Source: a virus
Length of the DNA stretch: 23,023 nt
IMG/VR virus record: IMGVR_UViG_3300025101_000203
Location: 1-23,023 of that record
Direction: 5' to 3' (one strand)
The notes under the pieces are model-generated. The model saw only the letters and a list, made by a program, of their open reading frames with translations. It ran no database searches and was not told where the DNA came from. Numbering within the stretch: position 1 is the stretch's first letter; each line of letters opens with the position of its first letter. A program made the translations under genes and the position numbers. This document shows positions 1 through 23,023 of this stretch, in pieces.

Positions 1-31
1 TCTTGTTCTGCATTTTCTATTTCATCGGCAA

Positions 32-214
32 ATGGCAAGGGCGTTGGTGATCATGTGGGTGCTATTATGGTTACAATTAGTGAGTGGAACTTTTGATCAT
101 TACCATGTGAGTAGTTACGCGAGTGAAGAAGCTTGCAAACAAGGCAAAGCAGAAGCAAAGGTGCTAGTCACCAGCCAAAACTCTAAAGTAGTGTGTATTA
201 AAATTGAACGGTGA
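32..214 (+). CDS. Small exported or membrane-anchored protein
   Basis: A 60-residue protein with a hydrophobic N-terminus (about residues 5-19, rich in V, I, L and W, ending in VSG) that looks like a signal peptide or single membrane anchor. The rest is hydrophilic with two cysteines 20 residues apart (C35 and C55), which could form a disulfide in the periplasm. I recognise no named family. The frame stays open to the left edge, so the true start could lie upstream, or at ATG 53, which has an AGGG about 12 bases before it. Its stop overlaps the next start as GTGA, so it belongs to the lysis-block transcript. The exported protein encoded at 2660-2875 has the same architecture. Function unknown. 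Confidence 0.6.
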   Translation: MARALVIMWVLLWLQLVSGTFDHYHVSSYASEEACKQGKAEAKVLVTSQNSKVVCIKIER

Positions 215-324
215 TATTAAAGGAATGGCGTAATAAATTTATTATCTATGATAAAAACGGAAAAGTTGTTATAATTACACGCGATAAAAATGTAGCGGTT
301 AAATACGCAAGGTCTTTGAAATGA
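211..324 (+). CDS. 37-aa hypothetical protein, GTG start, coupled at both ends
   Basis: Begins at GTG 211, sharing GTGA with the stop of the preceding gene, and ends at TGA 322-324, sharing ATGA with the next start. Reading in this frame gives 37 residues beginning VILKEWRNKF and containing IIYDKNGKVVIITRD, an alternating pattern typical of a short beta hairpin. There are no cysteines or membrane segment. Evidence for coding is the exact four-base overlap at both ends in a block where nearly every gene junction does this, and AAAGGA lying just inside the frame. It has no recognised family and is easily overlooked because of its length and GTG start. Confidence 0.55.
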   Translation: MILKEWRNKFIIYDKNGKVVIITRDKNVAVKYARSLK

Positions 325-668
325 CTGAATTTGAAAAAGCTGATCTAAACAATAACGGCGTTATAGAAAAAGCTGAGTGGAACAAACTGGCTTTGGAAGA
401 TCGTAGACTTGAGATGATTGACAGAGACTTGAAGCGCAATGCGGAGCGTAGGTTTACCGGGTTCGCTCTTGCCGGGATGTTGATATATCCGTTTATCATT
501 TTGTTAGCTTCTGTTCTTGGCTTTGACAAAGCAGCTAGTCTTATTACAGATATAGCAAGTGTATACGTGATTGCTGCATCAGGTGTAGTTGCTGCATTTA
601 TGGGATTTAATGCGTATGCTGCGAAAGCAGAGCCAAAGAAAGCAAGCATACAAATGGAGGGAGATTGA
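321..668 (+). CDS. EF-hand membrane protein of the lysis block
   Basis: 115 residues. Residues 8-19 (DLNNNGVIEKAE) form a canonical EF-hand calcium loop: acidic or Asn ligands at loop positions 1, 3 and 5, Gly at 6, Ile at 8 and Glu at 12. A charged linker follows, then two membrane segments at about residues 47-68 and 77-98 and a short basic tail. The single EF-hand on a two-pass membrane protein is directly visible. Its position just before a 3-TM holin suggests a lysis role such as a holin partner or calcium-responsive regulator, but that is inference. Start ATG 321 overlaps the preceding stop as ATGA, and the stop overlaps the holin start as TGATG. Confidence 0.75.
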   Translation: MTEFEKADLNNNGVIEKAEWNKLALEDRRLEMIDRDLKRNAERRFTGFALAGMLIYPFIILLASVLGFDKAASLITDIASVYVIAASGVVAAFMGFNAYAAKAEPKKASIQMEGD

Positions 669-1054
669 TGTTTGATTTATTAGGAAAGCTGGTAGATCCG
701 GTAAGCAATATTCTTGATAAAGTTATTGAAGATAAAGATCAAAAAGCAAAGTTAGCCCACGAAATTGCAACAATGGCAGAGAAAAATTCTCAAGCTTTGA
801 TGATGCAACAGTTAGAAATTTTAAAAGCTGATGCACAAGGTAACTGGTTTCAAGCTTCTTGGCGTCCACTTATCGGTTGGATTTGTGGTATATCATTAGG
901 AATAAATTACATGATTGCACCCATTGCATTAGGTTTTGGTTTTGCAATACCGCAAGCTGATATGTCAGTAATGATGCCCTTGCTTTTAGGTATGCTTGGG
1001 ATTGGTGGTATGCGTTCATTTGACAAGTTACAAAAAACGGACAGCAAAAAATGA
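668..1054 (+). CDS. Holin, 3-TM (GTA_holin_3TM type)
   Basis: 128 residues from ATG 668, preceded by a strong GGAGGG. An in-frame TTG at 665 is a less likely start. The N-terminal half is an amphipathic helical region (VDPVSNILDKVIEDKDQKAKLAHEI). Next comes the QASWRPLIGW motif at the start of the first membrane segment, then hydrophobic segments to about residue 117 and a charged C-terminus. This arrangement matches the 3TM holin family of gene transfer agents and alphaproteobacterial phages, which form inner-membrane holes that release the endolysin. It is sandwiched between the EF-hand membrane protein and another one-pass membrane protein, with the endolysin just downstream, overlapping the next gene as ATGA. 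Confidence 0.82.
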   Translation: MFDLLGKLVDPVSNILDKVIEDKDQKAKLAHEIATMAEKNSQALMMQQLEILKADAQGNWFQASWRPLIGWICGISLGINYMIAPIALGFGFAIPQADMSVMMPLLLGMLGIGGMRSFDKLQKTDSKK

Positions 1055-1311
1055 AGGTAAATGTTGGTTTAGCGTTTGCAATGGTTGTGCAGTTGGTTGC
1101 GTTGGTATGGTATATCAGTGGTCTTGTGCATGATCTGGAACATTTGCAAGGTACTGTATCAGCGCAGCAAGATTTGCTTGAACTTATAGATCAAGATGTA
1201 GATGATCTGTGGGCTTTCTGTACTTTTACCGAAAACAAGTGGGCAGAGGCTTACACAAGTGATATGGTGTACGAAAGATTGTGCGGAACAAAGGAGTTTG
1301 TTAATGAGTAA
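1051..1311 (+). CDS. One-pass membrane, coiled-coil protein (possible spanin-like)
   Basis: 86 residues. Residues 4-24 form an N-terminal membrane anchor (VGLAFAMVVQLVALVWYISGL), followed by a helical heptad-like stretch (HDLEHLQGTVSAQQDLLELI) and an acidic, aromatic C-terminal region with two cysteines. This topology, a short cytoplasmic N-terminus with a periplasmic coiled coil, and its place between holin and endolysin are what an inner-membrane spanin subunit would show. I see no overlapping lipoprotein partner, so the spanin assignment is tentative. Start ATG overlaps the holin stop as ATGA. Its end overlaps the endolysin start by eight bases. Confidence 0.65.
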   Translation: MKVNVGLAFAMVVQLVALVWYISGLVHDLEHLQGTVSAQQDLLELIDQDVDDLWAFCTFTENKWAEAYTSDMVYERLCGTKEFVNE

Positions 1312-1912
1312 AGCATTAAAAAAACTTCAAGAAAAGTGTGGAGCAAATGCTGATGGTAGCTTTGGACCAAATACTGCAAAGGCTATTTGCAATCAGTATG
1401 TTTTAAATGCAGAACGTGGGGCGCATTTTCTCGGTCAATTAGTACATGAAAGCGGCACGTTTAAATACACTGAAGAAAACTTAAACTACTCTAAAGAAGC
1501 CATCCTTAAAGTGTTTGGTAAATACTTCAAAACAGAAAGCGAAGCGGAAAGTTGTGCGCGCAATCCACAAGCATTGGCTGACCGTGTGTACGGACACCGT
1601 TACGGCAATAACGGACAAGGATACCTGTGGAGAGGACGCGGATTTTTACAAGTTACTTTCAAAGAAAATTATGCAATGTTTGCTGATGATATGAAATTGC
1701 CAGAGGTTATGAAAGACCCAGATTTAGTTGCAACTGAGTACCCGATGGAAAGTGCTATTTGGTTTTTTAAACGTAATAATCTTTGGGATCTTTGTAACGA
1801 AGCGCCAAATGCCGATAGTGTAAAGGCTCTTACACGCCGCGTAAACGGTGGCTACAATGGTTTAAAACACCGCGAGAAAGAAACTTACAAAATATATGAT
1901 TGGTTAACATAG
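1304..1912 (+). CDS. Endolysin, GH19 chitinase-like muramidase
   Basis: 202 residues. The start at ATG 1304 is supported by AAGGAG at 1291-1296; earlier in-frame starts lie inside the preceding gene. The N-terminus has a short peptidoglycan-binding-like repeat (NADGSFGPNTAKAI, residues 15-28). The catalytic domain shows LVHESGTF with E49 and EENLNYS with E58, the usual GH19 acid/base pair, then RGRGFLQVTFKENY (residues 110-123), the family signature. GH19 endolysins cut the glycan strands of peptidoglycan. There is no signal peptide, so release through the adjacent holin is expected. This is one of the most secure functional calls in the window. Confidence 0.92.
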   Translation: MSKALKKLQEKCGANADGSFGPNTAKAICNQYVLNAERGAHFLGQLVHESGTFKYTEENLNYSKEAILKVFGKYFKTESEAESCARNPQALADRVYGHRYGNNGQGYLWRGRGFLQVTFKENYAMFADDMKLPEVMKDPDLVATEYPMESAIWFFKRNNLWDLCNEAPNADSVKALTRRVNGGYNGLKHREKETYKIYDWLT

Positions 1913-1921
1913 GAGAAAGCA

Positions 1922-2098
1922 ATGCCACATGGAAAGAAACATGGTCTTTATGAGAATATCAGGTTAAAAAAGGCTAGAATTGCTGCCGGAAGTGGAGAAA
2001 AAATGAGAAAGCCCGGCACAGCTGGCGCGCCTACTGCACAAAATTTTAAAGATGCAGAAAAGACCGCAAAGAAACGCAAGAAATCTATGATGTCCTGA
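1922..2098 (+). CDS. Small basic protein with KKSMM tail (A)
   Basis: 58 residues, starting MPHGKKHGLYENIRLKKARI and ending KRKKSMMS. It is preceded by AGGAGA at a good distance. The protein is lysine- and arginine-rich, probably mostly disordered, with no membrane segment. It is the first of a run of very small basic genes placed just after the endolysin. The C-terminal K-R-K-K-S-M-M tail recurs in the genes at 2100, 2451 and 2500 and, in weaker form, at 12855. Such short basic proteins are common in marine podoviruses but I know of no assigned function. DNA binding or packaging into the virion is possible, by inference only. Confidence 0.7.
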   Translation: MPHGKKHGLYENIRLKKARIAAGSGEKMRKPGTAGAPTAQNFKDAEKTAKKRKKSMMS

Positions 2099-2099
2099 T

Positions 2100-2309
2100 A
2101 TGGCTAGACCACCAGAACGTACCGGGAATAGTGGCAGACGCGCAGCGTTCTTACAACGCATGGGTAAAATGCCGGGTCCAACTAAAAATAAAGATGGCAC
2201 TGACACGCCGTTGTTGAAATCATTAAAGGCATGGGGCGCTAGCTCTAAGTCTGAAGCAGTAGCAAAAGGCAAACGCATATCCATGATGAACAAGAAGAGG
2301 AAAGCATAA
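2100..2309 (+). CDS. Small basic protein with ISMM tail (B)
   Basis: 69 residues, starting MARPPERTGNSGRRAAFLQR and ending GKRISMMNKKRKA. Very rich in K and R, with a GKMPGPTKNKDG turn-like centre. Starts one base after the preceding stop and shares its own TAATG with the next start, so the run is translated as a unit. The SMM tripeptide followed by lysines aligns with the tails of its neighbours. No recognised domain. Function unknown. Confidence 0.68.
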   Translation: MARPPERTGNSGRRAAFLQRMGKMPGPTKNKDGTDTPLLKSLKAWGASSKSEAVAKGKRISMMNKKRKA

Positions 2310-2470
2310 TGCCAGAAAAATTAGAACGAAGTTTAATGGATCGCGCTACGAAGAAAGGTCTTAAAGGTAAGAAAAAAGACGCTTACGTTTATGGCACAAT
2401 GCAAAAGGTTGGCGGTCCAAAACTAGCAAAGAAAGCAGCGGAGACAGGAAATGTACGGAAAAAAACGTAA
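2309..2470 (+). CDS. Small basic protein (C), possibly interrupted before its tail
   Basis: 53 residues, starting MPEKLERSLMDRATKKGLKG and ending GNVRKKT. It resembles the neighbouring small basic proteins but lacks the SMM tail. The frame ends right after a run of seven A bases (2459-2465). Removing one A, or a +1 slip there, would continue the protein into the frame of the next small ORF, giving a 68-residue protein ending KKSMMDKGYGKGS, the same plan as its neighbours. So either this gene is complete and short, or it is one gene with the 2451 ORF, split by a homopolymer change, read error or slippage. Function unknown. Confidence 0.6.
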   Translation: MPEKLERSLMDRATKKGLKGKKKDAYVYGTMQKVGGPKLAKKAAETGNVRKKT

Positions 2471-2516
2471 ACCAAAAAAATCAATGATGGATAAAGGCTA
2501 TGGCAAAGGGAGTTAA
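2451..2516 (+). CDS. 21-aa KKSMMDKGYG peptide (D) or C-terminal part of gene C
   Basis: ATG 2451 to TAA 2516 encodes 21 residues beginning MYGKKRKPKKSMMDKGYG. The AGGA before it is only one base from the ATG, a poor ribosome-binding geometry, so independent translation is doubtful. It overlaps the end of gene C in the +1 frame just where C has seven consecutive A bases. The more likely reading is that this is the missing tail of C. Its DNA shares TCAATGATGGATAAA exactly with the end of the next gene. Confidence 0.35.
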   Translation: MYGKKRKPKKSMMDKGYGKGS

Positions 2517-2658
2517 GCATTACTTGCCAAACGGTAAGGAGTACAAAGGACCGACACATAAAATGTCGGACGGTACGTTACATACTGGTGCTACCCACAC
2601 AAAAAGCAGTCAGGTTTTGTCTCATAAAAAACCAAAGTCAATGATGGATAAAAAATAG
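2500..2658 (+). CDS. Small basic protein with KSMMDKK tail (E)
   Basis: 52 residues, starting MAKGVKHYLPNGKEYKGPTH and ending HKKPKSMMDKK. Rich in Lys and His, with HTKSSQ in the second half. It overlaps the preceding small ORF by 17 bases, and AAGG lies close before the ATG. The stop at 2656-2658 is one base from the end of the opposite-strand gene, so the plus-strand lysis transcript and the minus-strand operon converge here without a visible terminator between them. Similar HYLPNGKEYKGPTHKM proteins occur in marine phages as far as I recall. Function unknown. Confidence 0.65.
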   Translation: MAKGVKHYLPNGKEYKGPTHKMSDGTLHTGATHTKSSQVLSHKKPKSMMDKK

Positions 2659-2659
2659 A

Positions 2660-2875
2660 TTACGGTCTTGGCATTGGTTTGACATAATCCTTTGACACAA
2701 CGTTAGTGCCTTTGCAAAGGATAGCTACGTCTTTGCCATAAGGTTCTAAAATGTTTGACATATAATCTATACTATATGAGCAATCATCAAAGCTGGGAAG
2801 CAGTATGCTTGTCTTTACCTGTTCACCTTGCACAGTGTAAAATATCATCATAAATGTAAAATACGTTTTTATCAT
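2660..2875 (-). CDS. Small exported protein with two cysteines
   Basis: 71 residues. Residues 1-17 (MIKTYFTFMMIFYTVQG) form a signal peptide or membrane anchor. The remainder is polar with C32 and C54, spaced 22 apart, and a proline-rich end. ATGAGGT upstream gives a reasonable ribosome site. It is the last gene of the leftward operon and resembles in plan the exported protein at 32-214 (leader, then two cysteines about 20 apart). This could be an envelope protein acting on the infected cell, for example in superinfection exclusion, but no sequence feature proves that. Confidence 0.6.
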   Translation of the reverse strand: MIKTYFTFMMIFYTVQGEQVKTSILLPSFDDCSYSIDYMSNILEPYGKDVAILCKGTNVVSKDYVKPMPRP

Positions 2876-2909
2876 TGTGTATACCTCATAGTTTTATTAT
2901 TGTTAGTCA

Positions 2910-2970
2910 GGGGCAGTAAAGCTAGCGTAAGCAAGCTACTTAATCCTATATTGTAAAACCTTACTGCCCC
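2910..2970. other. Nested inverted repeat between two leftward genes
   Basis: A perfect 10-bp inverted repeat, GGGGCAGTAA at 2910-2919 and TTACTGCCCC at 2961-2970, encloses a second hairpin (AGCTAGC, GTAA loop, GCAAGCT at 2920-2937, one mismatch). No T-run follows on either strand, so it is not a standard intrinsic terminator. It lies in the 100-base gap after the HTH gene and before the exported-protein gene. It could be an attenuator, RNA-stability element or protein-binding site. Confidence 0.6.
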
Positions 2971-2975
2971 ACGAT

Positions 2976-5123: not shown

Positions 5124-5137
5124 TTTTTCTCTTTCGA

Positions 5138-5166: not shown

Positions 5167-5193
5167 GGAAAATAAATTACAAGGAGTTTTTTT

Positions 5194-5397: not shown

Positions 5398-5400
5398 TGT

Positions 5401-5733: not shown

Positions 5734-5734
5734 A

Positions 5735-6022: not shown

Positions 6023-6246
6023 CTTACATAGTTGAAAAAGGCGATAGCGCTGTAGAAGTTACAGTGATTGACGATACGCGCAAAGTTGAATTGCCAATGA
6101 AGAAATGCCCTTACTGTGATGGTGAGGGCGATTACTTAGTTGAAGAGCCTGTAGTTGATTACGTGCATGGTGGTTACTTACAAGAGAAGCGTGTTACTTG
6201 TGACGAATGTTATGGCAATCGTTACGTGGTTATTGAAGATGAATAA
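6019..6246 (+). CDS. Zinc-finger protein (two CxxC pairs)
   Basis: 75 residues from GTG 6019, which shares GTGA with the preceding stop and has GGAG six bases upstream. ATG 6007 and TTG 5998 are in-frame alternatives. KKCPYCDGEGDY and VTCDECYGNRYV form a pair of C-x2-C-x-G-x-G-like knuckles, as in DnaJ-type zinc domains, separated by about 25 residues. The N-terminal 28 residues look like a small beta sheet. Such proteins are frequent in phages and usually bind nucleic acid or a partner protein. No enzyme motif seen. Confidence 0.68.
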   Translation: MTYIVEKGDSAVEVTVIDDTRKVELPMKKCPYCDGEGDYLVEEPVVDYVHGGYLQEKRVTCDECYGNRYVVIEDE

Positions 6247-6931
6247 TTATGAAGTTGTAGAAGTTCCGAGCAGCACAGTTTGCGGACTATTTAAAGAAAA
6301 TCATTATTTAAAGAGAGTGCCTAATATTAAGTATGCTTTTGGGCTTTATAAAGAAAAGTATTTGTTTGGAGCATGTACTTTTGGGTTACCTCCGTCACAA
6401 ACTCTTTGCGCTGGTATTTTTAATGGAAAGTATCAAAACGAAATATTAGAGCTTAACAGATTGTTCTTAGTTCAAAACACAAAAAATTTAGCTTCTTTTT
6501 TTATTGCTAAATGTATGAAGCAGTTACCAAAACCAAGTGTAATTATAAGTTTTGCAGATACTAGCGCTCACCATCATGGATACATATATCAAGCATCAAA
6601 TTTTATTTACACAGGATTAAGCGCAAAATTTACAGATTATGCAGTTAAAGGTTTAGAGCATTTACATCACGCTACTATTGAGGATAGCGTTGGCAGATAT
6701 GACAAAAGCCCAAATTTAAATAAAAAAGAGGCTTTACAAAAAAAATACGGCGATAAGCTGTACAAAACAGAGCGACCAAGAAAACACCGATACATTTATA
6801 TTTGCGGCAGTAAAAAACAAAAAAAGGATCGTAAAAAAGATTTATTGTATCCAGTTTGTAATTATCCGAAAGGAAATAATAAAAATTATAGCGTGGGAAA
6901 TGTTGCACCGACACAGGGATTATTACTTTGA
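6239..6931 (+). CDS. mom: Mom-like adenine modification protein
   Basis: 230 residues from ATG 6239, overlapping the preceding stop by eight bases. Residues 31-58 (YAFGLYKEKYLFGACTFGLPPSQTLC), EILELNRLFL (68-77), SVIISFAD (100-107) and HHHGYIYQASNFIYTG (111-126) match the order and motifs of the phage Mu Mom family, a GNAT-related fold that converts adenine in DNA to a carbamoylmethyl form and so blocks many restriction enzymes. The C-terminal 40 residues are very basic (KKQKKDRKKD), suited to DNA contact. The gene is visibly more A/T-rich than its neighbours, suggesting separate acquisition. The Mu mom regulator Com is a zinc-finger protein, and zinc-finger genes flank this one on both sides, but that parallel is only suggestive. 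Confidence 0.8.
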   Translation: MNNYEVVEVPSSTVCGLFKENHYLKRVPNIKYAFGLYKEKYLFGACTFGLPPSQTLCAGIFNGKYQNEILELNRLFLVQNTKNLASFFIAKCMKQLPKPSVIISFADTSAHHHGYIYQASNFIYTGLSAKFTDYAVKGLEHLHHATIEDSVGRYDKSPNLNKKEALQKKYGDKLYKTERPRKHRYIYICGSKKQKKDRKKDLLYPVCNYPKGNNKNYSVGNVAPTQGLLL

Positions 6932-10833: not shown

Positions 10834-11010
10834 ATGAAAGAGGAAAACGTTGTACTGCTAGGTCACATTAACGAATTGCGTAGGCTAACTGTAGAGGCGT
10901 CTACAGCGGCGGTACAATACGAAAGCGCTGTATTATTGTTGGACATATACGAGCGAATGTTACAGAATATGGGTATTATGGATTTTGGCAAGGACGAGAC
11001 TAAGCACTAA
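10834..11010 (+). CDS. 58-aa helical protein before the large terminase
   Basis: From ATG 10834 (MKEENVVLLGHINELRRLTV) to a stop that shares TAATG with the large terminase. It is wholly helical with heptad-like spacing (INELRRLTVEASTAAVQYESAVLLLDIYERML). GAGAAAG upstream is a moderate ribosome site. The in-frame start at 10708 would add residues read from the GC-rich spacer, so it is unlikely. It may be a packaging accessory protein, unassigned. Confidence 0.6.
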   Translation: MKEENVVLLGHINELRRLTVEASTAAVQYESAVLLLDIYERMLQNMGIMDFGKDETKH

Positions 11011-12284
11011 TGCACATTGAGATACCTTACGAGCCTAGGGAGTTGCAGCGTAAGTTGCACAATGAGATGTCAGTTAAGCGCTGGGGTGTTGTTGTTTGCC
11101 ATCGTCGTTTTGGTAAGACTGTCTGGGCGATTAATCATATACTACGTGCTGCGTTAATGTGTGAGAAGAACAACCCTAGGCTAGCGTATATGGCTCCTAC
11201 GTATAGGCAAGCTAAGAATGTAGCGTGGGATTATATAAAGGAGTATGCTGGAAGGATACCGGGTGTACGTTTCCATGAAACGGAACTTCGGTGTGATTTA
11301 CCTACTGGTGCTAGGATTTCTTTGCTGGGTGCGGAAAACCCGGATAGTTTACGTGGAATATATTTAGATGGCTGCGTTATGGATGAGGTCGCGGATATGC
11401 CAGAGAATGTATTTCCAGAGGTGTTACGTCCGGCGTTATCTGATCGCAAAGGGTTTTGTATTTTTCTAGGCACACCAAAAGGGCATAATGCTTTTTATGA
11501 AAAGTATGAAGAAGCTGTAGCGAATGATGATTGGTTAGCTGCGGTGTATCGTGCTAGCGAAACTGGTATATTGGATCAGGAAGAGCTTGACGCGGCGAAG
11601 GTTATGATGTCGAGCGATCAGTATGCACAGGAGTTTGAGTGTAGTTGGAACGCAAATGTACCCGGTGCGGTATATGGAAAAGAGTTAGAAGAGGCGCAAG
11701 CCGATGGTAGGATTACGAATGTACCCTACAACCCGGCTAGCAAGGTAGATACTTGGTGGGATTTAGGTGTAGGCGATAGCACTGCAATATTTTTTACGCA
11801 GAACATAGGGCGCGCTGTTCACGTTATTGATTATTATGAAGCGCGTGGGGAAGGGTTGCCACACTATTGCAAGGTACTTTCTTCTAAGAATTATCTATAT
11901 GGTGAGCATAATGCACCACATGATATAGAAGTTAGAGAGTTAGGTACTGGTAAGAGTAGGCGAGAAATAGCTTGGGATCTAGGATTGAATTTCCGGGTGG
12001 TTCCTAAGTTACCAATAGAGGATGGTATTCACGCGGCGCAGATGCTGATACCGCGTTTATATTTTGATAGAGAGAAGTGTAAGTATGGCTTGGAATGTCT
12101 TAGGCAATATCACCGGGCGTATAACGAGCGCACTAGGAGTTTTAGGGCTACGCCTGTACATGATTACTCTAGTCACGCGGCAGATGCTTTTAGGTATCTG
12201 GCGGTGGGTCTTAGAGAAGAAGGACGCGGTGTTACAGCGCCGCAAAGACAAGCGGTAATGGACTATGATCCATTCGCAGCATAG
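11010..12284 (+). CDS. Terminase large subunit
   Basis: 424 residues. ATPase: Walker A CHRRFGKT (residues 30-37), Walker B CVMDE (122-126) and coupling motif LGTPKG (153-158). RNase H-like nuclease: WWDLGVGDST with D251, then a region up to HAADAFRY with D392. It pumps DNA into the prohead and cuts it. It is close to the shorter end of the usual TerL size range. Start overlaps the preceding stop by one base. The motifs, order and size make this the most certain packaging gene. Confidence 0.95.
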   Translation: MHIEIPYEPRELQRKLHNEMSVKRWGVVVCHRRFGKTVWAINHILRAALMCEKNNPRLAYMAPTYRQAKNVAWDYIKEYAGRIPGVRFHETELRCDLPTGARISLLGAENPDSLRGIYLDGCVMDEVADMPENVFPEVLRPALSDRKGFCIFLGTPKGHNAFYEKYEEAVANDDWLAAVYRASETGILDQEELDAAKVMMSSDQYAQEFECSWNANVPGAVYGKELEEAQADGRITNVPYNPASKVDTWWDLGVGDSTAIFFTQNIGRAVHVIDYYEARGEGLPHYCKVLSSKNYLYGEHNAPHDIEVRELGTGKSRREIAWDLGLNFRVVPKLPIEDGIHAAQMLIPRLYFDREKCKYGLECLRQYHRAYNERTRSFRATPVHDYSSHAADAFRYLAVGLREEGRGVTAPQRQAVMDYDPFAA

Positions 12285-12858: not shown

Positions 12859-13046
12859 TGGGTAAACGACCAAAAAATATAGCTGGCGCTATGGGCAAAC
12901 GATCTGCACAGCCAGCGAAAAGAATGAAAAACGCAACAGTAGATCCTATTGAGCGTTTAAATCAGCGTATGGCTGGTCGTACACAAGGCGGCGCTAAAAG
13001 TAAAAAGCGTAAAACATTAATGTCCGGGTATGGAGGAATGTACTAA
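12855..13046 (+). CDS. Small basic protein with KRKTLMSGYGG tail
   Basis: 63 residues, starting MMGKRPKNIAGAMGKRSAQP, very Lys/Arg-rich, ending KKRKTLMSGYGGMY. ATG 12855 shares ATGA with the preceding stop; ATG 12858 is one codon later. The tail resembles the K-x-S-M-M-x-K-G-Y-G tails of the small genes at 1922-2658, 10 kb away, and the position inside the head operon links that family to the virion. It overlaps the portal start as TAATG. Function unknown. Confidence 0.65.
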   Translation: MMGKRPKNIAGAMGKRSAQPAKRMKNATVDPIERLNQRMAGRTQGGAKSKKRKTLMSGYGGMY

Positions 13047-14659
13047 TGGCTGAAGTTTTACCTATGATAGCGCAGCTTGATAGGCGTTTAAAGACGTTGC
13101 AAACGCAAAGATCTAATTGGGAAAGCCATTGGCAACAGCTAGCAGATTTTATGTTGCCGCGAAAAGCAGACATTACTAAGAAACGACAGCAAGGCGATAA
13201 GCGTACAGAGTTGTTATTTGATGGTACTGCAATCCATGCTGTAGAATTATTATCAAGTAGTTTACACGGTATGCTTACTTCTCCAAGCACACCTTGGTTT
13301 TCTATGCGCTACCGCGATCCAGTGCTGCAACAAAATGATGCTGCTAACGAATGGTTAGAAGTTGCAATAGATCAAATGTATCAAGCGTTTCATAGATCTA
13401 ACTTCCAACAAGAGATACATGAGCTTTACTATGATTTAGTTGTATTTGGTACAGCTGCTTTCTATGTAGAAAGTGCGCCAGAAGGTTTACGTTTTTCTTC
13501 CCGGCATATTGCAGAAATTTGCATTAGTGAAGATGCAGAAGGTCGCGTAGATACGGTGTATCGTAAGTTTAAACTAACAGCGCGTAGCATTGCTATGCAG
13601 TTTGGCGAAGAAAACTTACCGCAAGAAATTAAAAAAAGTTTAGATAGTGAGCCATTTAAGGAACATCCTATTATTCATGTGGTACACCCACGCAAAGATG
13701 GCAAAGGTAGAGCAAAGAAAAGCAAGCCTGTAGCGTCTATTTACTATACAGCTAATACACGACAGCTACTATCTGAAAGCGGTTTTGACGAATTTCCGTT
13801 TATGGTTCCGCGTTTTGTTAAAGATAGTGTTAGTACTTACGGACGTAGCCCGGCAATGAACGCGCTACCAGATACTAAAATGCTAAACAAAATGGCAGAA
13901 ACAACAATTAGGGCTGCACAAAAACAGATCGACCCTCCGCTAATGGTTCCTGATGATGGGTTTATGTTGCCTGTCAGGACAACACCGGGGGCTTTAAACT
14001 TTTACCGTACAGGTACAAGAGATAGACTAGAGCCGTTGCAGATAGGAGCAAACAATCCTCTAGGTTTAAATATGGAAGAGCAAAGACGAAACGCTATCAG
14101 GCAAGCTTTCTTTGTAGATCAGCTGCTAATGGCTAATGGACCGTCTATGACTGCTACCGAAGTCTTGCAAAGAAACGAAGAGAAGATGCGGTTGCTTGGG
14201 CCTGTTTTGGGTAGGCTACAAGCCGAATTGCTCCAGCCGTTAATCTCTAGATCCTTTGCATTGCTGCTCCGTAACGGTCTTCTCCCAGCCGCGCCGGAGC
14301 AGCTTCAAGGTCAGGATATAGATATTGAATATGTATCGCCATTAGCAAAAGCGCAAAAAATGACAGATCTACAGTCAATGTTGCGTGGGTTTGAAGTCTT
14401 GTTGCAGATGCAGCAAGTAGCGCCAGTAATGGATTATCTAGATGATGATAAGCTTGTACAGTATTTAGTCGAAACAACAGGTATCCCGGCGCGTGTTGTG
14501 CGTAGTAGAAGTGAAGTAGAACAATTACGCAGACAAAGAGCAGAAGCGCAAGCAGCGCAAGCACAAGCGCAACAAGAAGCGTCTATAGCAGATCAAGCGC
14601 AGAAGCTAGCACCAGCGTTAAAAGTCGCGTCTGATGCAAGACAACGTGGACAAATATGA
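13046..14659 (+). CDS. Head-tail connector (portal) protein, T7 gp8-like
   Basis: 537 residues. The N-terminal WESHWQQLADFMLPRK block, FDGTAIHAVELLSSSLHGMLTSPSTPWF, YDLVVFGTAAFYVE and FVKDSVSTYGRSPAMNALPDTKMLNKM are in the order typical of the T7-type connector family. Length matches (about 530-560). The C-terminal tail is Gln/Ala-rich (residues 490-535), a coiled-coil-like region. It forms the twelve-fold ring through which DNA enters and to which the short tail attaches. It shares TAATG with the upstream gene and ATGA with the next. Confidence 0.93.
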   Translation: MAEVLPMIAQLDRRLKTLQTQRSNWESHWQQLADFMLPRKADITKKRQQGDKRTELLFDGTAIHAVELLSSSLHGMLTSPSTPWFSMRYRDPVLQQNDAANEWLEVAIDQMYQAFHRSNFQQEIHELYYDLVVFGTAAFYVESAPEGLRFSSRHIAEICISEDAEGRVDTVYRKFKLTARSIAMQFGEENLPQEIKKSLDSEPFKEHPIIHVVHPRKDGKGRAKKSKPVASIYYTANTRQLLSESGFDEFPFMVPRFVKDSVSTYGRSPAMNALPDTKMLNKMAETTIRAAQKQIDPPLMVPDDGFMLPVRTTPGALNFYRTGTRDRLEPLQIGANNPLGLNMEEQRRNAIRQAFFVDQLLMANGPSMTATEVLQRNEEKMRLLGPVLGRLQAELLQPLISRSFALLLRNGLLPAAPEQLQGQDIDIEYVSPLAKAQKMTDLQSMLRGFEVLLQMQQVAPVMDYLDDDKLVQYLVETTGIPARVVRSRSEVEQLRRQRAEAQAAQAQAQQEASIADQAQKLAPALKVASDARQRGQI

Positions 14660-15868: not shown

Positions 15869-16729
15869 ATGTCTACTCAAATAACTACAGCTTTTGTTCA
15901 ACAGTTCTCCGCGAACATCCAGATGCTATCACAGCAAAAGGGTTCGTTGCTGCGTAATGCAGTTGACAGTGAGAGTGTGAACGGTGAAAAAGCTTTTTTC
16001 GATCAAGTAGGTGCAGCGGCAGCTGTTCTACGAACCTCACGCCATGCAGACACGCCATTGGTGGAAACACCACATAGCAGACGTATGGTAACTATGGCTG
16101 ATTATGAATATGCAGATTTGATTGACGATCAAGACAAAGTACGCTTGCTTGCTGATCCAACATCTACTTATTCTCAAGCAGCGGCGGCAGCTATGGGCAG
16201 AGCAATGGATGATGTAATCATTACTGCGGCTCTTGGTACAGCAACAACTGGTAAAGATGGTAGCACTTCTACAACGCTTCCAGCTGGGCAGAAAGTTGCA
16301 CATGGCAGCGCCGGGTTAACTATTGCAAAACTTCTAAGTGCTAAAGAAATCTTAGATAGTAACAGTGTTGACCCATCCATCACGCGGCATATTATTGTAT
16401 CGCCAAAGCAAATCTCTGATCTGCTTAACAATACAACCGTAACGTCAAGTGATTTTAATACTGTAAAAGCTTTGGCAACAGGTGATCTAAACTCATTTGT
16501 TGGCTTTAACTTTATCGTATCTAATCGTTTGAACACTGACAGCAACAGTGACCGTCAGGTTATTGCTTTTGCCAGTGACGGTATCAAGCTGGCAATCGGT
16601 AAAGAACCGTCTGCTCGGATTGATGAACGTGCCGATAAGTCATACTCAACGCAAGTCTATTACTGTCAGTCCATCGGGGCAACTCGCATGGAAGAAGAAA
16701 AAGTAGTAGAAATTGCGTGTAACGAATAA
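15869..16729 (+). CDS. Major capsid protein
   Basis: 286 residues. MSTQITTAFVQQFSANIQML is a typical start of the Phage_capsid_2-type fold. Further matches are QKGSLLRNAVDSE, the DYEYADLIDDQDKVRLLADPTSTYSQAAAAAMGRAMDD block and a GATRMEEEKVVEIAC end. Strong AAGGAG upstream. The size and position after scaffold, before a decoration-like protein and the tail tube genes, support it. Confidence 0.9.
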   Translation: MSTQITTAFVQQFSANIQMLSQQKGSLLRNAVDSESVNGEKAFFDQVGAAAAVLRTSRHADTPLVETPHSRRMVTMADYEYADLIDDQDKVRLLADPTSTYSQAAAAAMGRAMDDVIITAALGTATTGKDGSTSTTLPAGQKVAHGSAGLTIAKLLSAKEILDSNSVDPSITRHIIVSPKQISDLLNNTTVTSSDFNTVKALATGDLNSFVGFNFIVSNRLNTDSNSDRQVIAFASDGIKLAIGKEPSARIDERADKSYSTQVYYCQSIGATRMEEEKVVEIACNE

Positions 16730-17236: not shown

Positions 17237-17250
17237 ATTGGAGATAGAGA

Positions 17251-17856
17251 ATGACAAGTACCGTTGATATTGCTAACTATGCGCTAAACAGTTTAGGTGC
17301 ATCTAATATTACTGCGCTAGATGAAAACAGCAAACCAGCGCGCATTGTTAACCAGCGATACGAAGCGGTAAGGGATAGTGTGTTTAGATCGCATCCTTGG
17401 AATTGTTTAATTCGTAGGGCAGAGCTAGCACAAGAAAGTACAGCGCCTACATATGGCTACGGTAAACAGTATGCGTTACCTACAGACCCATTTTGTTTGC
17501 GCGTATTAGAGTTTAGTAACGGCACATTAACGTTTCCGTTTGATAATATGAGAAGCAATAGCGATACTCCGGCGTTTATTATTGAGGGTCGCAAGCTATT
17601 GACAGACGAAGGTACTGCAAAAATTAAGTATGTTGCCCGGATTACAGACCCACAACAGTACGATGCCGGGCTAATTGAAACCTTAGCAGCTAGATTGGCG
17701 TATGAAATATCGTATGCAATTACAGGATCTACTACTGTACGGCAGCTATCGGCAGCTGATTACGATAGAAAACTCAAAGAAAGCACGTTTCAAGACGCAA
17801 CTGAAGGTGCGCCAGAGCGTATTGAAGCTAATGATTTTGTCGAGGCGCGTTTCTAA
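17251..17856 (+). CDS. Tail tubular protein A, T7 gp11-like
   Basis: 201 residues. DIANYALNSLGASNITALDENSKPARIVNQRYEAVRDSVFRSHPWNCLIRRAEL is the classic N-terminus of the gp11/TTPA family: A-N-x-A-L-x-x-L-G, then R-x-x-V-L/F-x-x-x-H-P-W-N. ALPTDPFCLRVLEF and YAxRITDPQQYD follow. It forms the upper tail ring joined to the connector. TTGGAGAT upstream; shares TAATG with the next gene. Length is normal. Confidence 0.92.
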   Translation: MTSTVDIANYALNSLGASNITALDENSKPARIVNQRYEAVRDSVFRSHPWNCLIRRAELAQESTAPTYGYGKQYALPTDPFCLRVLEFSNGTLTFPFDNMRSNSDTPAFIIEGRKLLTDEGTAKIKYVARITDPQQYDAGLIETLAARLAYEISYAITGSTTVRQLSAADYDRKLKESTFQDATEGAPERIEANDFVEARF

Positions 17857-19859
17857 TGGCAAGATCTGCACCTTCACTAAGCACATTTACAGCTGGTGAA
17901 ATATCGCCACGCTTAGAAGGGCGTATTACGCTAGAGAAATACAAGGCTGGCTTATCAGATTTAACTAACATGGTGGTGCAACCACACGGCGGCGTTACAC
18001 GTAGACCGGGTACTCAGTATCTTGGTACTGTAAAAGATAGCAGTGTAAAGAGTAGGCTTATACCATTTCAGTTTAAAACCACAGATACATACATACTTGT
18101 GTTTGGGGATCAAGTTATGCGTGTGTATCGCAACGGTTCTCAAGTTTTAAAAGGATCGGCACAAAATATTACAGCTGTAACAAAAGCAAACCCCGGCGTA
18201 GTAACAATATCTTCTCATGGCTATAGCAATGGTGATGAAATATTTTTAGATAATGTTGTCGGCATGACAGAATTAAATGGTCGTAACTATAAGGTAGCTA
18301 ACGTCACAACAAATACATTTACGTTGCAAGATCTATTTGGCAACAACATAAACACAACAAACTTTACAACATATGCGTCAGCTGGGGCAGTAGATGAAAT
18401 ATTTGAAGTAGCAACGCCATACGCAGCGGCTGACATATTTAATTTACGTTTCGCGCAAAGTGCAGATATTATGTATTTTGTACATCCAAGCTATGCAATT
18501 CGTACTTTATCGCGTACAAATCACAACGCTTGGACATTTGCCACAGCAACAATTACTGGATCGCCTAATCCATCACTGTCAGGTACTGATAATTACCCTA
18601 GTGTTGTTACGTTTTTTGAACAAAGACTTGTTTTTGCAGCAACAAATAACAATCCACAAACGTTATGGTTTAGTAAAAGCGCGGATTATCTTAACTTTAC
18701 TACAGGAACAAACGCAGATGATGCACTGATTTACACAATTGCATCAAATCAAGTAAACAATATTAGGTATTTATCAGCTACGCGAGTGCTTACTATTGGT
18801 ACTTCCGGCGGTGAATACGTGCTTACAACTACAAATGACGGTCCTATAACGCCGACTACAACGCAAATTCGTAAGTATTCTAACTACGGATCGGCTAATA
18901 CAGAGCCTGTACAGGTCGCAGATGTTACGTTGTTTCTGCAACGCGGCAATAGAAAAGTGCGAGAGTTTAAGTATATTGGTGAAGTAAACACAGCCGGGTA
19001 TCAAGCGCCAGATCTAACAGTGTTAGCAGAACATATTACTGAAGGTGGCCTAGAAAGTTTTGCGTATCAACAAGAGCCAGAAAATATTGTATGGGCTATA
19101 CGTGCCGATGGTGCGCTAGTAGGTTTAACGTATCGGCGTGAAGAGCAAGTTGTTGCGTGGCATAAACATACGATAGGTGGCACGTTTAGCGGCGGTTCGG
19201 CAGTAGTCGAAAGCATTGCAACGTTACCTACGGACACAGGTAATGACGAGCTATACATGATTGTAAAACGCACTATCAATAGTGTTACCCGGCGATATGT
19301 AGAGCGAATGAAAGATTTTGATTTTGGCAGCAATACTACGTCTGCATTTTTTGTAGATAGCGGTTTATCGTATTCGGGCAGTGCGGTTACTAGTTTTAGT
19401 ACGCTGTATCACTTAGAAGGTGAAACGGTTTCTGTGCTTGCTAACGGCGCAAGTCATGCAAATAAAGCAGTATCAAGCGCATCTATAGCACTTGATTTTT
19501 CTGCAACTACCGCTGCTATTGGGTATGGGTATACATCAAATATGCAAACGTTGCGGATTGAAAGTGGATCTTCTGACGGAACAAGTCAGGGTAAACCGAA
19601 AAGAATACACGGTATTACAGTACGATTATTTGAAACAGTGGGCGTAGAAGTGGGCAACGATAGCTCGGAAACGGATCGGATCTTTTTCCGTGACAGTTCT
19701 ATGGATATGGATACAGCGGTTCCTCTTTTTTCTGGCGATAAAGATGTTGAGTTTCCGGGTGGCTTTGATGATGATGATAGAATATACTTACAACAGACAC
19801 AGCCACTACCGTTGACAGTATTAGCACTGTATCCAAGGATGAATACTTTTGATAAATGA
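17856..19859 (+). CDS. Tail tubular protein B (nozzle), T7 gp12-like
   Basis: 667 residues. SLSTFTAGEISPRLEGRITLEKYKAGLSDLTNMVVQPHGGVTRRPGTQYL is the family signature at the start. LRFAQSADIMYFVHPSYAIRTLSR and YPSVVTFFEQRLVFAATNNNPQTLWFS are further typical blocks, followed by a large beta-rich region. It builds the hollow tail nozzle through which DNA is ejected. Size fits gp12-like proteins that lack large extra domains. It overlaps TTPA by one base and the next gene as ATGA. Confidence 0.92.
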   Translation: MARSAPSLSTFTAGEISPRLEGRITLEKYKAGLSDLTNMVVQPHGGVTRRPGTQYLGTVKDSSVKSRLIPFQFKTTDTYILVFGDQVMRVYRNGSQVLKGSAQNITAVTKANPGVVTISSHGYSNGDEIFLDNVVGMTELNGRNYKVANVTTNTFTLQDLFGNNINTTNFTTYASAGAVDEIFEVATPYAAADIFNLRFAQSADIMYFVHPSYAIRTLSRTNHNAWTFATATITGSPNPSLSGTDNYPSVVTFFEQRLVFAATNNNPQTLWFSKSADYLNFTTGTNADDALIYTIASNQVNNIRYLSATRVLTIGTSGGEYVLTTTNDGPITPTTTQIRKYSNYGSANTEPVQVADVTLFLQRGNRKVREFKYIGEVNTAGYQAPDLTVLAEHITEGGLESFAYQQEPENIVWAIRADGALVGLTYRREEQVVAWHKHTIGGTFSGGSAVVESIATLPTDTGNDELYMIVKRTINSVTRRYVERMKDFDFGSNTTSAFFVDSGLSYSGSAVTSFSTLYHLEGETVSVLANGASHANKAVSSASIALDFSATTAAIGYGYTSNMQTLRIESGSSDGTSQGKPKRIHGITVRLFETVGVEVGNDSSETDRIFFRDSSMDMDTAVPLFSGDKDVEFPGGFDDDDRIYLQQTQPLPLTVLALYPRMNTFDK

Positions 19860-20305: not shown

Positions 20306-20823
20306 TGATGGGTACGCAAGTTGCTGGCGGCATAGCAGAAAAAAGCGCTGCTAACAAAGCGGCAGCGGCAGCTGCAAGAGTTGGTGAGTTTAATGCACAG
20401 ATTATCGAGCGTGACATAAATCTAGCAGAAAATCAACGTACTATTATTAACAACAATGTGCTTATTTCTAACAAACGTAAACGTATGGCGTTTCGTGAGG
20501 CGCAAGGTGCAGCTGTAGCTGGGTTTGCTTATGCTGGCGTAGATATTGCAGTCGGTACACCTATGGATGTTTTGCGTAAAGGTGGTCGGGAAAGTGATTT
20601 TGAAATTGCTATAGATAAATTTAATAACTACGTCACCAATATGCAGATTAACGATGCTATAGAAGATACAAAGTTAACAGCGCAGTTATCACGTATGGAA
20701 GCTGGTGCATCAGCGGCCGCGCTTAGATCGTCAGGTACGGCAAGTTTAATAGCTGGTTTTGGTTCCGCTGCACGTATTGGTTACGACACTGGTTATTTCG
20801 CAAGCAATACTGCAACTGCTTAG
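20284..20823 (+). CDS. Internal virion protein, T7 gp14-like
   Basis: 179 residues. MDALPLLMMGTQVAGGIAEKSAANKAAAAAARVGEFNAQIIERD, then NQRTIINNNVLISNKRKRMAFREAQGAAVAGFAYAGVDIAVGTPMDVLRKGGRESDFE: hydrophobic start, Ala-rich helix, and the G-x-P-x-D-V-L motif common to gp14-like ejection proteins. T7 gp14 enters the host outer membrane during ejection. Start overlaps the preceding gene by 22 bases. The match is by layout and position. Confidence 0.75.
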   Translation: MDALPLLMMGTQVAGGIAEKSAANKAAAAAARVGEFNAQIIERDINLAENQRTIINNNVLISNKRKRMAFREAQGAAVAGFAYAGVDIAVGTPMDVLRKGGRESDFEIAIDKFNNYVTNMQINDAIEDTKLTAQLSRMEAGASAAALRSSGTASLIAGFGSAARIGYDTGYFASNTATA

Positions 20824-20839
20824 TAAAGGGTAAATATTA

Positions 20840-23023
20840 ATGCGTATACCTATCTATCGTGCTGGTAGCACACCTACAAGCGAAGCGCCCGGTCGTAGTT
20901 TTAGAGCAAGAGCGAGTGCAGCGCCTTTTATTCGACAGGCAGAAGCTAAAGCTAGTGTGTTTACAGCTGCTACTAAACAGATTGGTGAGTTTGCTGCTAC
21001 GCGATACAAAGCTGCTAGGGAAGCGCAGATAAACCAAAAGTTACTAGCTGGTGAAGCAGCTTTACGTGAAGATGCGCGTAGATTGTCTAGAGTTGATCCG
21101 GGTGAACTTGGTTCAATTTTTAACGAAGGTGGCAACGAACAAGAAGGTCAGTGGGCGTTAGCTACTAAAACAGCAAGAGAAAGTTTGCTAGACGGTGTTA
21201 CTGATCCGCGCAGTCAACAAGTATTAACTGACCGTTTCAATCAAATGGAGCTAACCTATCGGTATAGCTTACGCGGTGCAATAGATACAAAGCTTGATGC
21301 AGCTACGCAAAAAACAAGAGCCGATGCAGCAACGCAGTTTTCGCAAAACATTGCAAGTGCTACAGAACTAAACGAAGCAAAACTTCACGCAAATAACTTT
21401 GGCATTAACTCTGTTAGGCTTGCACAGTTAGGACTAGGTAATCCCGGTGCATTAAAACAACAAGAGTACAATGCTTTGTACAACGGTATTCTTGGCAATA
21501 TACGTGCAGCATTGAATAGTAGCGGTACGCCTGTACAAGACTTAGAAGAGTTACGACTAACTCTTAGGGATTTACAAAAGCTGCAAAGCGAAGGGCTTTC
21601 TGTTTCTGAAAGGGCAGCTGGTAGGGAAACTGTGTTAGCCAACAGTGGAGCCGGGCGTATGCAGATCGGTTTACTGGAAATGTTGCCGATGAATGATGCG
21701 GCAAAACTATTGCAAAGTCTTGGCGCTGGTGCAGCGTTTTTTGATGCTCCGTCAGCTGAACAACAAAAACTTGAAAGAGTTAATCTTCAAATTCTTAAAG
21801 AAACAAAAAAAGGAATTACTGATGGCGTTTCAATGTTGCAAAAAGGATTGGCTTTACCTGATGGTTATATAGAAACGTTAGAAGCGCAAGCGCAACTGAC
21901 TATGCCTTTCGGAGATGAAGCAGACCAAACTGTTACTACTGAAGGTCTTGCTGATTTACGTTTTTTAAACAATCTTTCGCAAGCTGTTAAAGGTGTCAGT
22001 AACACAAAAGGTATTAACGATTTAATAATTAGCTTAGAAGGTCCGGGTGTTACAGAAGGTCAAGCAAGTTTAGGTTTAGAGTTTTTGCGCGGTTTTAAAG
22101 CTGACATGGAAAAACAACTTAAATCTGATCCTGTAGGATACGCTTCTAAAGTAGGGTCGGTAGATATAACTCCAATAGACTTATCTCCACAGGCAATACA
22201 AAGTTCAAACTTTACAGGTGGTATTGATAACACCGGGATCTCTAAAAGAATAAATGATGCGATTGCAATACATGGTCATTATGAACTTGACGGAGCTATA
22301 AAGTTTCTTACGCCAGAAGATGTTGCTAAATATGCGCCAAGTTTTAATACAGGAACAGCTGTAGAAAAAATGCAAGCTATCACTACAGTTCAACAAATGT
22401 TTGGTAGACACGCCGGGTCGGTGTTAGAACAGCTGTCTGGTCAAGCGCCTGTTACAATGCACGTTGCTGGTCTTATGCAAGATGGGCTTATGCCACAAGC
22501 TGAAGTAATATTTAAAGGTGTAGAAGAAATAAACGCAAACGGTGTGCCGATAGAAGGTACTGATATGCGTGAAGCAGAAAGCACAATGTTTGGTATTATT
22601 GGTGCGGCGTATGAATTTTTGCCCGGCGAACTAAATGCTAAACTTAAAAAAGATATAAAAGATGTAGCATTAGCGTATTACGCAGAAGTTATTTCGCGTA
22701 AAGTTGATAAGACTTATGACGAAGGTTTGTGGTCAGAAGCTGTTAAGATTGCGTCAGGTTTTAATCCGCAAACTGGTGGCGGTGGTGTGCAAGAAATAAA
22801 AGAAAAACCAACAATTCTACCGCCAAATAGAACAGCTGAAGAAATAGAAACAGCATTAGAAAATATAACAATAGAAAACTTTAGCAGTATTGCTAGCACA
22901 ACACTTATTGACAAAGAATTATTTGAGGCAATTCAAAGTGGCGAACAATATTCTTTATATACAAGAGGTCGTGAGAATGGAAAGATTGTTTACGGTGTTC
23001 AGCGTGGCGAATATGGATCAACT
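20840..23023 (+). CDS. Large internal virion/ejection protein, 5' part (T7 gp15/gp16 position)
   Basis: Opens at ATG 20840 with AAAGGG nine bases upstream and stays open for 728 codons to the window edge, so the gene is cut off. It starts MRIPIYRAGSTPTSEAPGRS and continues with long Ala/Gln/Lys-rich helical regions (residues 20-320), then a more globular portion. GREN and VYGVQRGEYG near the end suggest more domains to come. Position after the gp14-like gene and the helical make-up point to the inner-core ejection proteins that form a channel for DNA entry. I see no lytic transglycosylase motif in the visible part. Confidence 0.78.
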   Translation, partial: MRIPIYRAGSTPTSEAPGRSFRARASAAPFIRQAEAKASVFTAATKQIGEFAATRYKAAREAQINQKLLAGEAALREDARRLSRVDPGELGSIFNEGGNEQEGQWALATKTARESLLDGVTDPRSQQVLTDRFNQMELTYRYSLRGAIDTKLDAATQKTRADAATQFSQNIASATELNEAKLHANNFGINSVRLAQLGLGNPGALKQQEYNALYNGILGNIRAALNSSGTPVQDLEELRLTLRDLQKLQSEGLSVSERAAGRETVLANSGAGRMQIGLLEMLPMNDAAKLLQSLGAGAAFFDAPSAEQQKLERVNLQILKETKKGITDGVSMLQKGLALPDGYIETLEAQAQLTMPFGDEADQTVTTEGLADLRFLNNLSQAVKGVSNTKGINDLIISLEGPGVTEGQASLGLEFLRGFKADMEKQLKSDPVGYASKVGSVDITPIDLSPQAIQSSNFTGGIDNTGISKRINDAIAIHGHYELDGAIKFLTPEDVAKYAPSFNTGTAVEKMQAITTVQQMFGRHAGSVLEQLSGQAPVTMHVAGLMQDGLMPQAEVIFKGVEEINANGVPIEGTDMREAESTMFGIIGAAYEFLPGELNAKLKKDIKDVALAYYAEVISRKVDKTYDEGLWSEAVKIASGFNPQTGGGGVQEIKEKPTILPPNRTAEEIETALENITIENFSSIASTTLIDKELFEAIQSGEQYSLYTRGRENGKIVYGVQRGEYGST

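What the first reader, a model, noticed from the sequence alone, without database searches (positions are those of the whole stretch)
1..23023. No GANTC site in 23 kb
I scanned every line for GAATC, GACTC, GAGTC and GATTC and found none, although base composition (about 40% GC) predicts about 80. The site is its own reverse complement, so one strand covers both. Other palindromic five-mers such as CCNGG and GTNAC, and the four-mer GATC, are plentiful, so this is specific and not a composition effect. GANTC is the target of the CcrM methylase of Alphaproteobacteria and of HinfI-type restriction enzymes. Total loss points to long selection by GANTC restriction, or to escape from CcrM-linked control, and to an alphaproteobacterial host.
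Basis: partly seen in the sequence, partly recalled or inferred. Interest (0 to 1): 0.78.

Follow-up and report, generated by a model that had tools for sequence, protein, structure and literature searches.

The report
Phage purged of restriction-target words
This uncultured virus of bacteria has lost every copy of the short DNA word GANTC and several other words of the kind that bacterial defence enzymes cut, an extreme but familiar form of camouflage that suggests its host is an alphaproteobacterium.

Summary
The count is right: GANTC occurs 0 times in 23,023 bases. Shuffling synonymous codons gives 39.1 (sd 5.1, minimum 24 of 1000) in the coding part. It is not specific: CCWGG, CCTGC, CCCGC, GGGAC, CTGCAG and ATGCAT are also absent against 7.6 to 33 expected; CGACG, ACGGG and CAGCAG nearly so. 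The window is a virus record related to HTVC010P-type pelagiphages. The shortage is inherited: observed/expected 0 to 0.20 in the 23 tree rows of its terminase clade, about 1 in some distant relatives. In hand-picked isolates, 16 phages of alphaproteobacteria have ratios up to 0.84 (median 0.40), five phages of other hosts 0.92 or more. Stretches of CcrM-bearing genomes are milder (median 0.53, n=20) than the window but lower than CcrM-lacking ones (0.90, n=17). Best reading: restriction-site avoidance on top of a CcrM-linked shortage, in a phage of an alphaproteobacterium. GANTC depletion in pelagiphages is published (PMC9516812). Neither host nor restriction enzyme was identified.

The parts
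1..23023 (.). Whole window: no GANTC; also no CCWGG, CCTGC/GCAGG, CCCGC/GCGGG, GGGAC/GTCCC, CTGCAG or ATGCAT
   Evidence: Script counts and 1000 synonymous-codon shuffles
11010..12284 (+). Terminase large subunit; marker for the lineage
   Evidence: Best isolate matches 55-56%, HTVC010P-type pelagiphages; 94-100% to L002-L022; tree
13046..14659 (+). Portal / head-tail connector
   Evidence: phrog_332 E 3e-164
15869..16729 (+). Major capsid protein
   Evidence: phrog_3437; up to 75% to pelagiphages
17856..19859 (+). Tail protein (tail tubular B position)
   Evidence: phrog_376 E 1e-197
665..1054 (+). Holin
   Evidence: phrog_3427; 69% to Phage C72C1 (host not given), then 43% to Roseobacter phage CRP-810
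1307..1912 (+). Chitinase-type endolysin
   Evidence: phrog_181; best isolate match Roseobacter phage CRP-901, 57%
6239..6931 (+). Mom-family DNA modification protein; a cassette missing from close relatives, hence not the cause of the GANTC loss
   Evidence: PF25680 131.9 bits, phrog_1384; 0 of 18 related virus records have it; window positions about 6246 and 6941 adjoin in G001 and G003

Best explanation
An uncultured podovirus lineage has purged, largely by synonymous changes, a set of short words that serve as targets of host restriction enzymes, GANTC among them. SHOWN: the zero count; its excess over codon-aware chance; several other wholly absent words; the lineage-wide, graded GANTC loss; the lower GANTC ratio in the sampled phages of alphaproteobacteria and in sampled CcrM-bearing genomes. 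INFERRED: the host is an alphaproteobacterium carrying CcrM, perhaps of the Roseobacter group; part of the GANTC shortage (about two-fold) is shared with such hosts' chromosomes; the rest was driven by enzymes in the host population that cut unmodified GANTC (HinfI-like specificity) while the chromosome is protected by methylation, the phage DNA being copied too fast, or outside the time of CcrM activity, to be methylated.
For: GANTC 0 against 39.1. Absence in all codon phases. Other absent words resemble known restriction specificities (CCWGG, CTGCAG, GGGAC, CCCGC, CAGCAG; enzymes recalled, no call), and the set differs between sister clades, e.g. CCGG 0/42 in L025 and CCWGG 0/27 in L034. GANTC O/E 0-0.20 in the 23 rows of the clade, 0.78 and 0.62 in HTVC034P and HTVC010P, 0.81-1.10 in L064-L081. 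Close relatives G003 (33,996 b) and G001 (30,294 b) have 2 sites and 1 site. Sixteen alpha phages at most 0.84, five others at least 0.92, exact one-sided p 5e-5 (rows hand-picked and not independent). CcrM+ median 0.53, CcrM- 0.90, p 9e-6. Wholly absent words in samples of T7 and HMO-2011 show that the phenomenon is general in phages. Profile correlation of the window: CRP-902 0.47, CRP-901 0.45, CRP-361 0.43, HTVC010P 0.10.
Against: No GANTC restriction enzyme was sought in any host, and PMC3973325 (passages) suggests that CcrM homologs are orphan methylases in all Alphaproteobacteria. No host was identified: 6 genome loci, none credible. SAR11 GANTC sites are methylated (PMC9516812), yet the SAR11 phages HTVC120P (0.84), HTVC034P (0.78) and HTVC106P (0.72) are hardly depleted. 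One CcrM- stretch is as poor as 0.36 and one CcrM+ stretch reaches 0.89; PMC3973325 also counts Magnetococcales, which as I read the passage lack CcrM, among the depleted orders. Five of eight roseophages resemble the window's word profile no more than others do (CRP-403 0.30, CRP-823 0.26, CRP-810 0.21, CRP-125 0.16, CRP-804 0.12), while HMO-2011 has 0.32, P-SSP7 0.31 and OH 0.30. Some words are in strong excess (CAGCTG 36/9.6, CCSGG 51/11.2), which simple avoidance does not predict directly.
Confidence: 0.62

Rival explanations
1. The GANTC loss is not restriction avoidance: whatever makes CcrM-bearing chromosomes poor in GANTC (for instance a cost of methylated or hemimethylated sites in genes) acts on the phage too.
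For: CcrM+ stretches have median O/E 0.53 and alpha phages 0.40, not significantly different (p 0.18). At least two-fold depletion in alphaproteobacterial genomes is published (PMC3973325, passages).
Against: The window is at 0, outside the range of the 20 CcrM+ stretches (0.28-0.89). The same genome lacks many words unrelated to CcrM. Phages of one host group, SAR11, range from 0.02 (HTVC019P) to 0.84 (HTVC120P).
Confidence: 0.17
2. Methyl-directed restriction: CcrM methylates incoming phage DNA and a nuclease that cuts methylated GANTC destroys it, so sites are selected against.
For: Fits a widespread CcrM without known partner enzymes; PMC4687349 (passages) describes DpnI/DpnII-like complementary systems for GATC.
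Against: Such a nuclease would cut a CcrM-methylated chromosome, so it could only work across strains; no candidate was searched for.
Confidence: 0.08
3. Escape from CcrM/GcrA transcription control.
For: CcrM and GcrA act at GANTC sites in promoters (PMC9836097 and PMC3973325; passages).
Against: Most expected sites lie inside genes, in codon phases 0 and 2, and all are gone; promoter control gives no reason to clear coding sequence, nor for the other absent words.
Confidence: 0.04
4. The phage's own Mom-type modification or another phage enzyme created the bias.
For: A Mom-family gene lies at 6239-6931.
Against: 0 of 18 related virus records have the Mom family, yet G001 and G003 have only 1 and 2 GANTC sites. 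PF01555 (N6/N4 methylases) matched 0 of 19 relatives' records; other methylase families were not searched there.
Confidence: 0.03
5. Chance or base composition.
Against: Minimum of 1000 shuffles is 24; relatives share the loss.
Confidence: 0.01

Closest known systems
GANTC-depleted pelagiphages (Seong et al. 2022, PMC9516812; section 12 and passages seen)
   Same: Marine phages of which whole clades lack GANTC; HTVC019P, here 1 against 56 expected in 30,000 of its 42,084 bases, is an Autographiviridae pelagiphage, the group that paper points to.
   Different: The window is kin to the HTVC010P-type phages, of which the three SAR11 phages or kin I counted are only mildly depleted (0.62-0.78); it is richer in G+C (42%) and lacks several further words.
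Restriction-site avoidance of phages such as T7
   Same: Several target-like words missing; T7 lacks CGATC and CCAGG in the sampled coding sequence and has GATC 5/122, CCWGG 2/50 in all of it.
   Different: Different word set; T7 has GANTC in excess (182/133).
HTVC010P-type pelagiphages
   Same: Gene order terminase-portal-capsid-tail, capsid up to 75%.
   Different: Terminase only 55-56%; GANTC ratio and word profile differ (r 0.10).
GANTC shortage of alphaproteobacterial genomes (Gonzalez et al. 2014, PMC3973325; passages seen)
   Same: Shortage of the same word.
   Different: About two-fold there and, total here.

Membership tests
Restriction-site-avoiding phage | Target-like words far below a codon-aware expectation | tested here: met
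   GANTC 0/39.1, CCWGG 0/20.5, CTGCAG 0/9.5 and others
Restriction-site-avoiding phage | Loss inherited in the lineage and lineage-specific | tested here: met
Restriction-site-avoiding phage | Host or its neighbours carry a restriction enzyme for the missing word | not tested
   Host unknown; no enzyme search was made
Phage of a CcrM-bearing alphaproteobacterium | GANTC ratio in the range of isolate phages of alphaproteobacteria | tested here: met
   Window 0; 16 alpha phages 0-0.84, 5 others 0.92 or more
Phage of a CcrM-bearing alphaproteobacterium | Direct host link (prophage, isolate, genome match) | tested here: inconclusive
   6 loci, none a credible host; L087 is a 78-base match at a contig end
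HTVC010P-type podovirus family | Homologous terminase, portal, capsid and tail genes in the same order | tested here: met
HTVC010P-type podovirus family | Infects SAR11 | tested here: inconclusive
   No host found; G+C 42% against 32% and the word profile speak against SAR11
Mom family (gene 6239-6931) | Match over the curated cut-off of the Mom model | tested here: met
   PF25680 131.9 bits, cut-off 27.1
Mom family (gene 6239-6931) | Adenine modification activity | not testable with these tools
   None

The most novel reading that the evidence does not exclude
CcrM is not a true orphan: across marine and soil alphaproteobacteria a yet unidentified defence reads the methylation state of GANTC, with CcrM as its protecting methylase, and unrelated phage lineages (this clade, HTVC019P, CRP-823, Pasto) have independently purged GANTC to escape it. 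GANTC density in a phage genome would then also serve as a simple marker of an alphaproteobacterial host.
Probability: 0.15. Interest if true: 0.75.

Novelty: new member of a known kind. Interest (0 to 1): 0.38.

Why it matters
Total loss of a word is a readable scar of host defence. If the separation of phages of alphaproteobacteria from other phages by GANTC ratio (16 against 5 here) holds in a full survey, GANTC density would give a cheap host clue for uncultured phages, and it would raise the testable question why phages of hosts with a supposedly orphan methylase are under such pressure. The clade also offers sister lineages with different sets of missing words, a natural record of changing restriction pressure.

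Tried and rejected
Mom as cause: rejected, the gene is missing from relatives that are nearly as empty. Phage-borne methylase: PF01555 matched 0 of 19 relatives' records and 0 of 16 alpha-phage records, so the planned test (phages with a methylase keep GANTC) could not be made; other methylase families were not searched. Host by genome scan: 6 loci. L087, a Halieaceae MAG contig, carries only 78 bases of terminase at its very end, in frame behind a gene I take for lapB (by eye), and looks like an assembly join. L082 sits in a MAG titled Euryarchaeota and is probably misbinned. The record of Phage C72C1 (best holin match) gives no host, and no held paper has that name together with 'phage'.

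Excess of CCCGG: the total of CCCG is as expected (57/57) and only its next base is shifted (CCCGC 0/17, CCCGT 1/17, CCCGA 5/11, CCCGG 51/11), so this excess may only mirror avoidance of its neighbours under a shuffle that fixes codon counts. CAGCTG is not explained that way (CAGCT 132/64).

A Vsr-like repair bias (CTNGG turned into CCNGG) was considered and dropped: CTNGG is near expectation in the window, 77/81. PADLOC: no match for the 10 window proteins given.

Errors of mine: the gene list had the Mom gene in a wrong frame (6180 instead of 6239); one search is the corrected count, and from then on the comparisons used automatic open frames. The table lists the window twice. Dropped rows: 3 of 20 CcrM- stretches as too short; loci under 9 kb; terminase matches under 300 residues and some loci left out by name; G004 from lineage statements as a whole, because it is a chimera, though its phage part L005 stays in the tree. 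The alpha and other phages were picked by hand, several are related, several are partial records, P-SSP7's record names no host, and the Manatee Spring phage (77/84), whose host is unknown, was put in neither group.
Full report
WHAT WAS CLAIMED AND WHAT IS THERE. GANTC occurs 0 times in the 23,023-base window. Base composition predicts 84.3 sites, but codon use and protein sequence lower the fair expectation: 1000 shuffles of synonymous codons over 36 open frames that I took as genes (20,760 bases) give 39.1, sd 5.1, minimum 24. Expected sites fall in codon phases 0, 1 and 2 as 19.8, 3.7 and 15.5, and all are missing, as they are from the 2,518 bases outside those frames. One-mismatch neighbours of GANTC are near expectation in total (735/780; single words from z -3.1 to +3.7). 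The absence is real.

IT IS NOT SPECIFIC. The same test finds CCWGG 0/20.5, CCTGC 0/33.2, CCCGC 0/17.7, GGGAC 0/10.8, CTGCAG 0/9.5, ATGCAT 0/7.6, CGACG 1/17.4, ACGGG 1/17.3, CAGCAG 2/21.8, GGCC 9/30.1 and TCGA 15/36.7, while GATC 84/72.7 and GTNAC 75/67.1 are normal. Several of these words are recognition sequences of known restriction enzymes (recalled, no call).

WHAT THE WINDOW IS. A linear IMG/VR virus record of 23,023 bases, of a class that is often a fragment. It carries lysis genes (holin, chitinase-type endolysin), a resolvase-like nuclease and a Mom-family gene, terminase, portal, capsid and tail genes. Megablast found no match in the phage collection. The best terminase matches among isolates are HTVC010P-type pelagiphages at 55-56%, and the capsid reaches 75%. 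ARAGORN found no tRNA.

THE LOSS IS INHERITED AND GRADED. The terminase brought in 80 IMG/VR loci, the best of 156. On a tree of 44 terminases the 23 rows of the window's clade (starred branch) have GANTC ratios of 0 to 0.20; the next rows (L043, L054, L048, L052, L053) 0.24 to 0.52; L082 0.64, HTVC010P 0.62, HTVC034P 0.78, HTVC106P 0.72; L064 to L081 0.81 to 1.10; Venkman, Manatee and P26218 0.95 to 1.03; further rows outside are L084 0.67, L085 0.25 and the Ochrobactrum phage OH 0.24 (a quick tree without bootstrap, some long branches). The close relative G003 (33,996 bases, probably near complete because both its ends match one gene of contig G004) has 2 sites, and G001 one in 30,294. Sister clades miss other words: CCGG 0/42 in L025, CCGA 0/30 and GCGC 0/14 in L048, CCWGG 0/27 and CAGCTG 0/7 in L034. 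Such turnover of whole sets of missing words is what changing restriction pressure would leave.

CALIBRATION. Wholly missing words are common in phages: in equal-sized samples of coding sequence T7 lacks CCAGG and CGATC, HMO-2011 lacks GATC and CCAGG, Venkman lacks GATC. For GANTC the isolates split by host. Sixteen phages of alphaproteobacteria range from 0 to 0.84 with median 0.40: CRP-823 0/55, HTVC019P 1/56, Pasto 4/60, CRP-804 10/60, CRP-361 10/59, OH 24/101, CRP-902 15/58, CRP-125 18/55, CRP-901 35/75, CRP-810 45/77, CRP-403 33/56, HMO-2011 79/128, HTVC010P 43/69, HTVC106P 62/86, HTVC034P 40/51, HTVC120P 42/50. Five others range from 0.92 upward: Syn5 67/73, P-SSP7 80/69, T7 182/131, P26218 68/67, Venkman 78/76 (counts in predicted open frames, several records only in part). 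The separation is complete (exact one-sided p 5e-5), but the phages were chosen by hand and several are related, so the p value overstates the evidence.

HOST CHROMOSOMES. The RAMA domain (PF18755) rang only in Caulobacter among 14 controls, so I used it as a CcrM marker. It was found over the cut-off in 37 of 150 genomes of the phylum of a Halieaceae MAG. One 20-kb stretch from each of 20 of those 37 has a median GANTC ratio of 0.53 (0.28-0.89); 17 usable stretches of 20 taken from genomes without a match have 0.90 (0.36-1.14), p 9e-6. This agrees with the published shortage of at least two-fold (PMC3973325, passages), which however also covers Magnetococcales, an order that as I read the passage lacks CcrM. 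Alpha phages do not differ clearly from CcrM-bearing stretches (p 0.18), but the window lies outside the latter's range.

HOST OF THIS PHAGE. Not found. The only genome scan gave six loci, none credible. Indirect hints: the endolysin is nearest to Roseobacter phages CRP-901 and CRP-902 (57% and 51%), then Flavobacterium phages (49%). The holin is nearest to a phage without stated host (69%) and then to CRP-810 (43%), but the 23 records with a match include six Vibrio and five Alteromonas phages. The Mom protein matches 211 records, mostly of other bacteria; CRP-902 at 39% is one of the best. The window's profile of over- and under-used 5-mers correlates best with CRP-902 (0.47), CRP-901 (0.45) and CRP-361 (0.43), then HMO-2011 (0.32), P-SSP7 (0.31), OH (0.30) and CRP-403 (0.30); four further roseophages have 0.12 to 0.26, and its structural kin HTVC010P 0.10. 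I take an alphaproteobacterial host as likely and the Roseobacter group as a guess.

MECHANISM. The simplest account has two layers: a mild GANTC shortage common to CcrM-bearing chromosomes and their phages, and on top of it counter-selection of restriction targets, which emptied GANTC together with the other words. The restriction step is inferred; no enzyme was sought, and PMC3973325 suggests that CcrM is an orphan methylase. Rivals are listed with their odds.

PRIOR ART. Seong et al. 2022 (PMC9516812, section 12 and passages) found most GANTC sites of a SAR11 genome methylated and about half of 33 pelagiphages depleted of GANTC, by clade, and raised defence by methylation marks as a possible cause. 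Among the titles and abstracts listed by my searches on GANTC with phage terms (one search listed 20 of 56 papers) I saw no report of this clade or of the alpha/other split; most listed papers were not opened, among them PMC12570018 and PMC13076061, and papers outside the library were not searched. PMC7139368 (passages) and PMC5463345 (one passage) describe phage methylases of GANTC or CcrM-like type.

VERDICT. A true and extreme observation, wrongly called specific, best read as an uncultured member of a known kind: a phage shaped by restriction-site avoidance, with a GANTC component that points to an alphaproteobacterial host.

Noticed in passing
6239-6931 (+): A Mom-family DNA modification gene inserted between positions that adjoin in the close relatives G001 and G003; 0 of 18 related virus records have it, only the more distant L082 does (41%).
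   Followed up: partly
L023-L026 against window and L034: Mirror-image sister clades: the window's clade has no CCWGG and much CCSGG, while L023-L026 have no CCSGG (L024 and L025 no CCGG at all) and about three-fold excess of CCWGG (125/37 in L025).
   Followed up: partly
window 1-23023: CAGCTG is in strong excess (36 against 9.6) here and in several relatives, but absent in the coding sequence of L034, L036 and L054; not explained.
   Followed up: partly
L090, L091, L092 (contig of L005): The 44.8-kb contig has two terminases and two portals: about 20 kb with 40 GANTC sites and about 25 kb with none, so it is probably an assembly chimera that GANTC density exposes.
   Followed up: yes
L087:9392-10078: A Halieaceae MAG contig ends in 78 bases of this phage clade's terminase fused in frame to a lapB-like gene, probably an assembly join.
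   Followed up: partly
L128, L115: The phages CRP-823 (0/55) and HTVC019P (1/56) also lack GANTC, or nearly, in the coding sequence examined.
   Followed up: partly
L048: A relative with an unusually long list of absent words (CCAGA 0/33, CCGA 0/30, ACAGG 0/25, CACTG 0/17, GCGC 0/14).
   Followed up: no
L186: A stretch of a genome without a RAMA match is as poor in GANTC (0.36) as CcrM-bearing ones.
   Followed up: no
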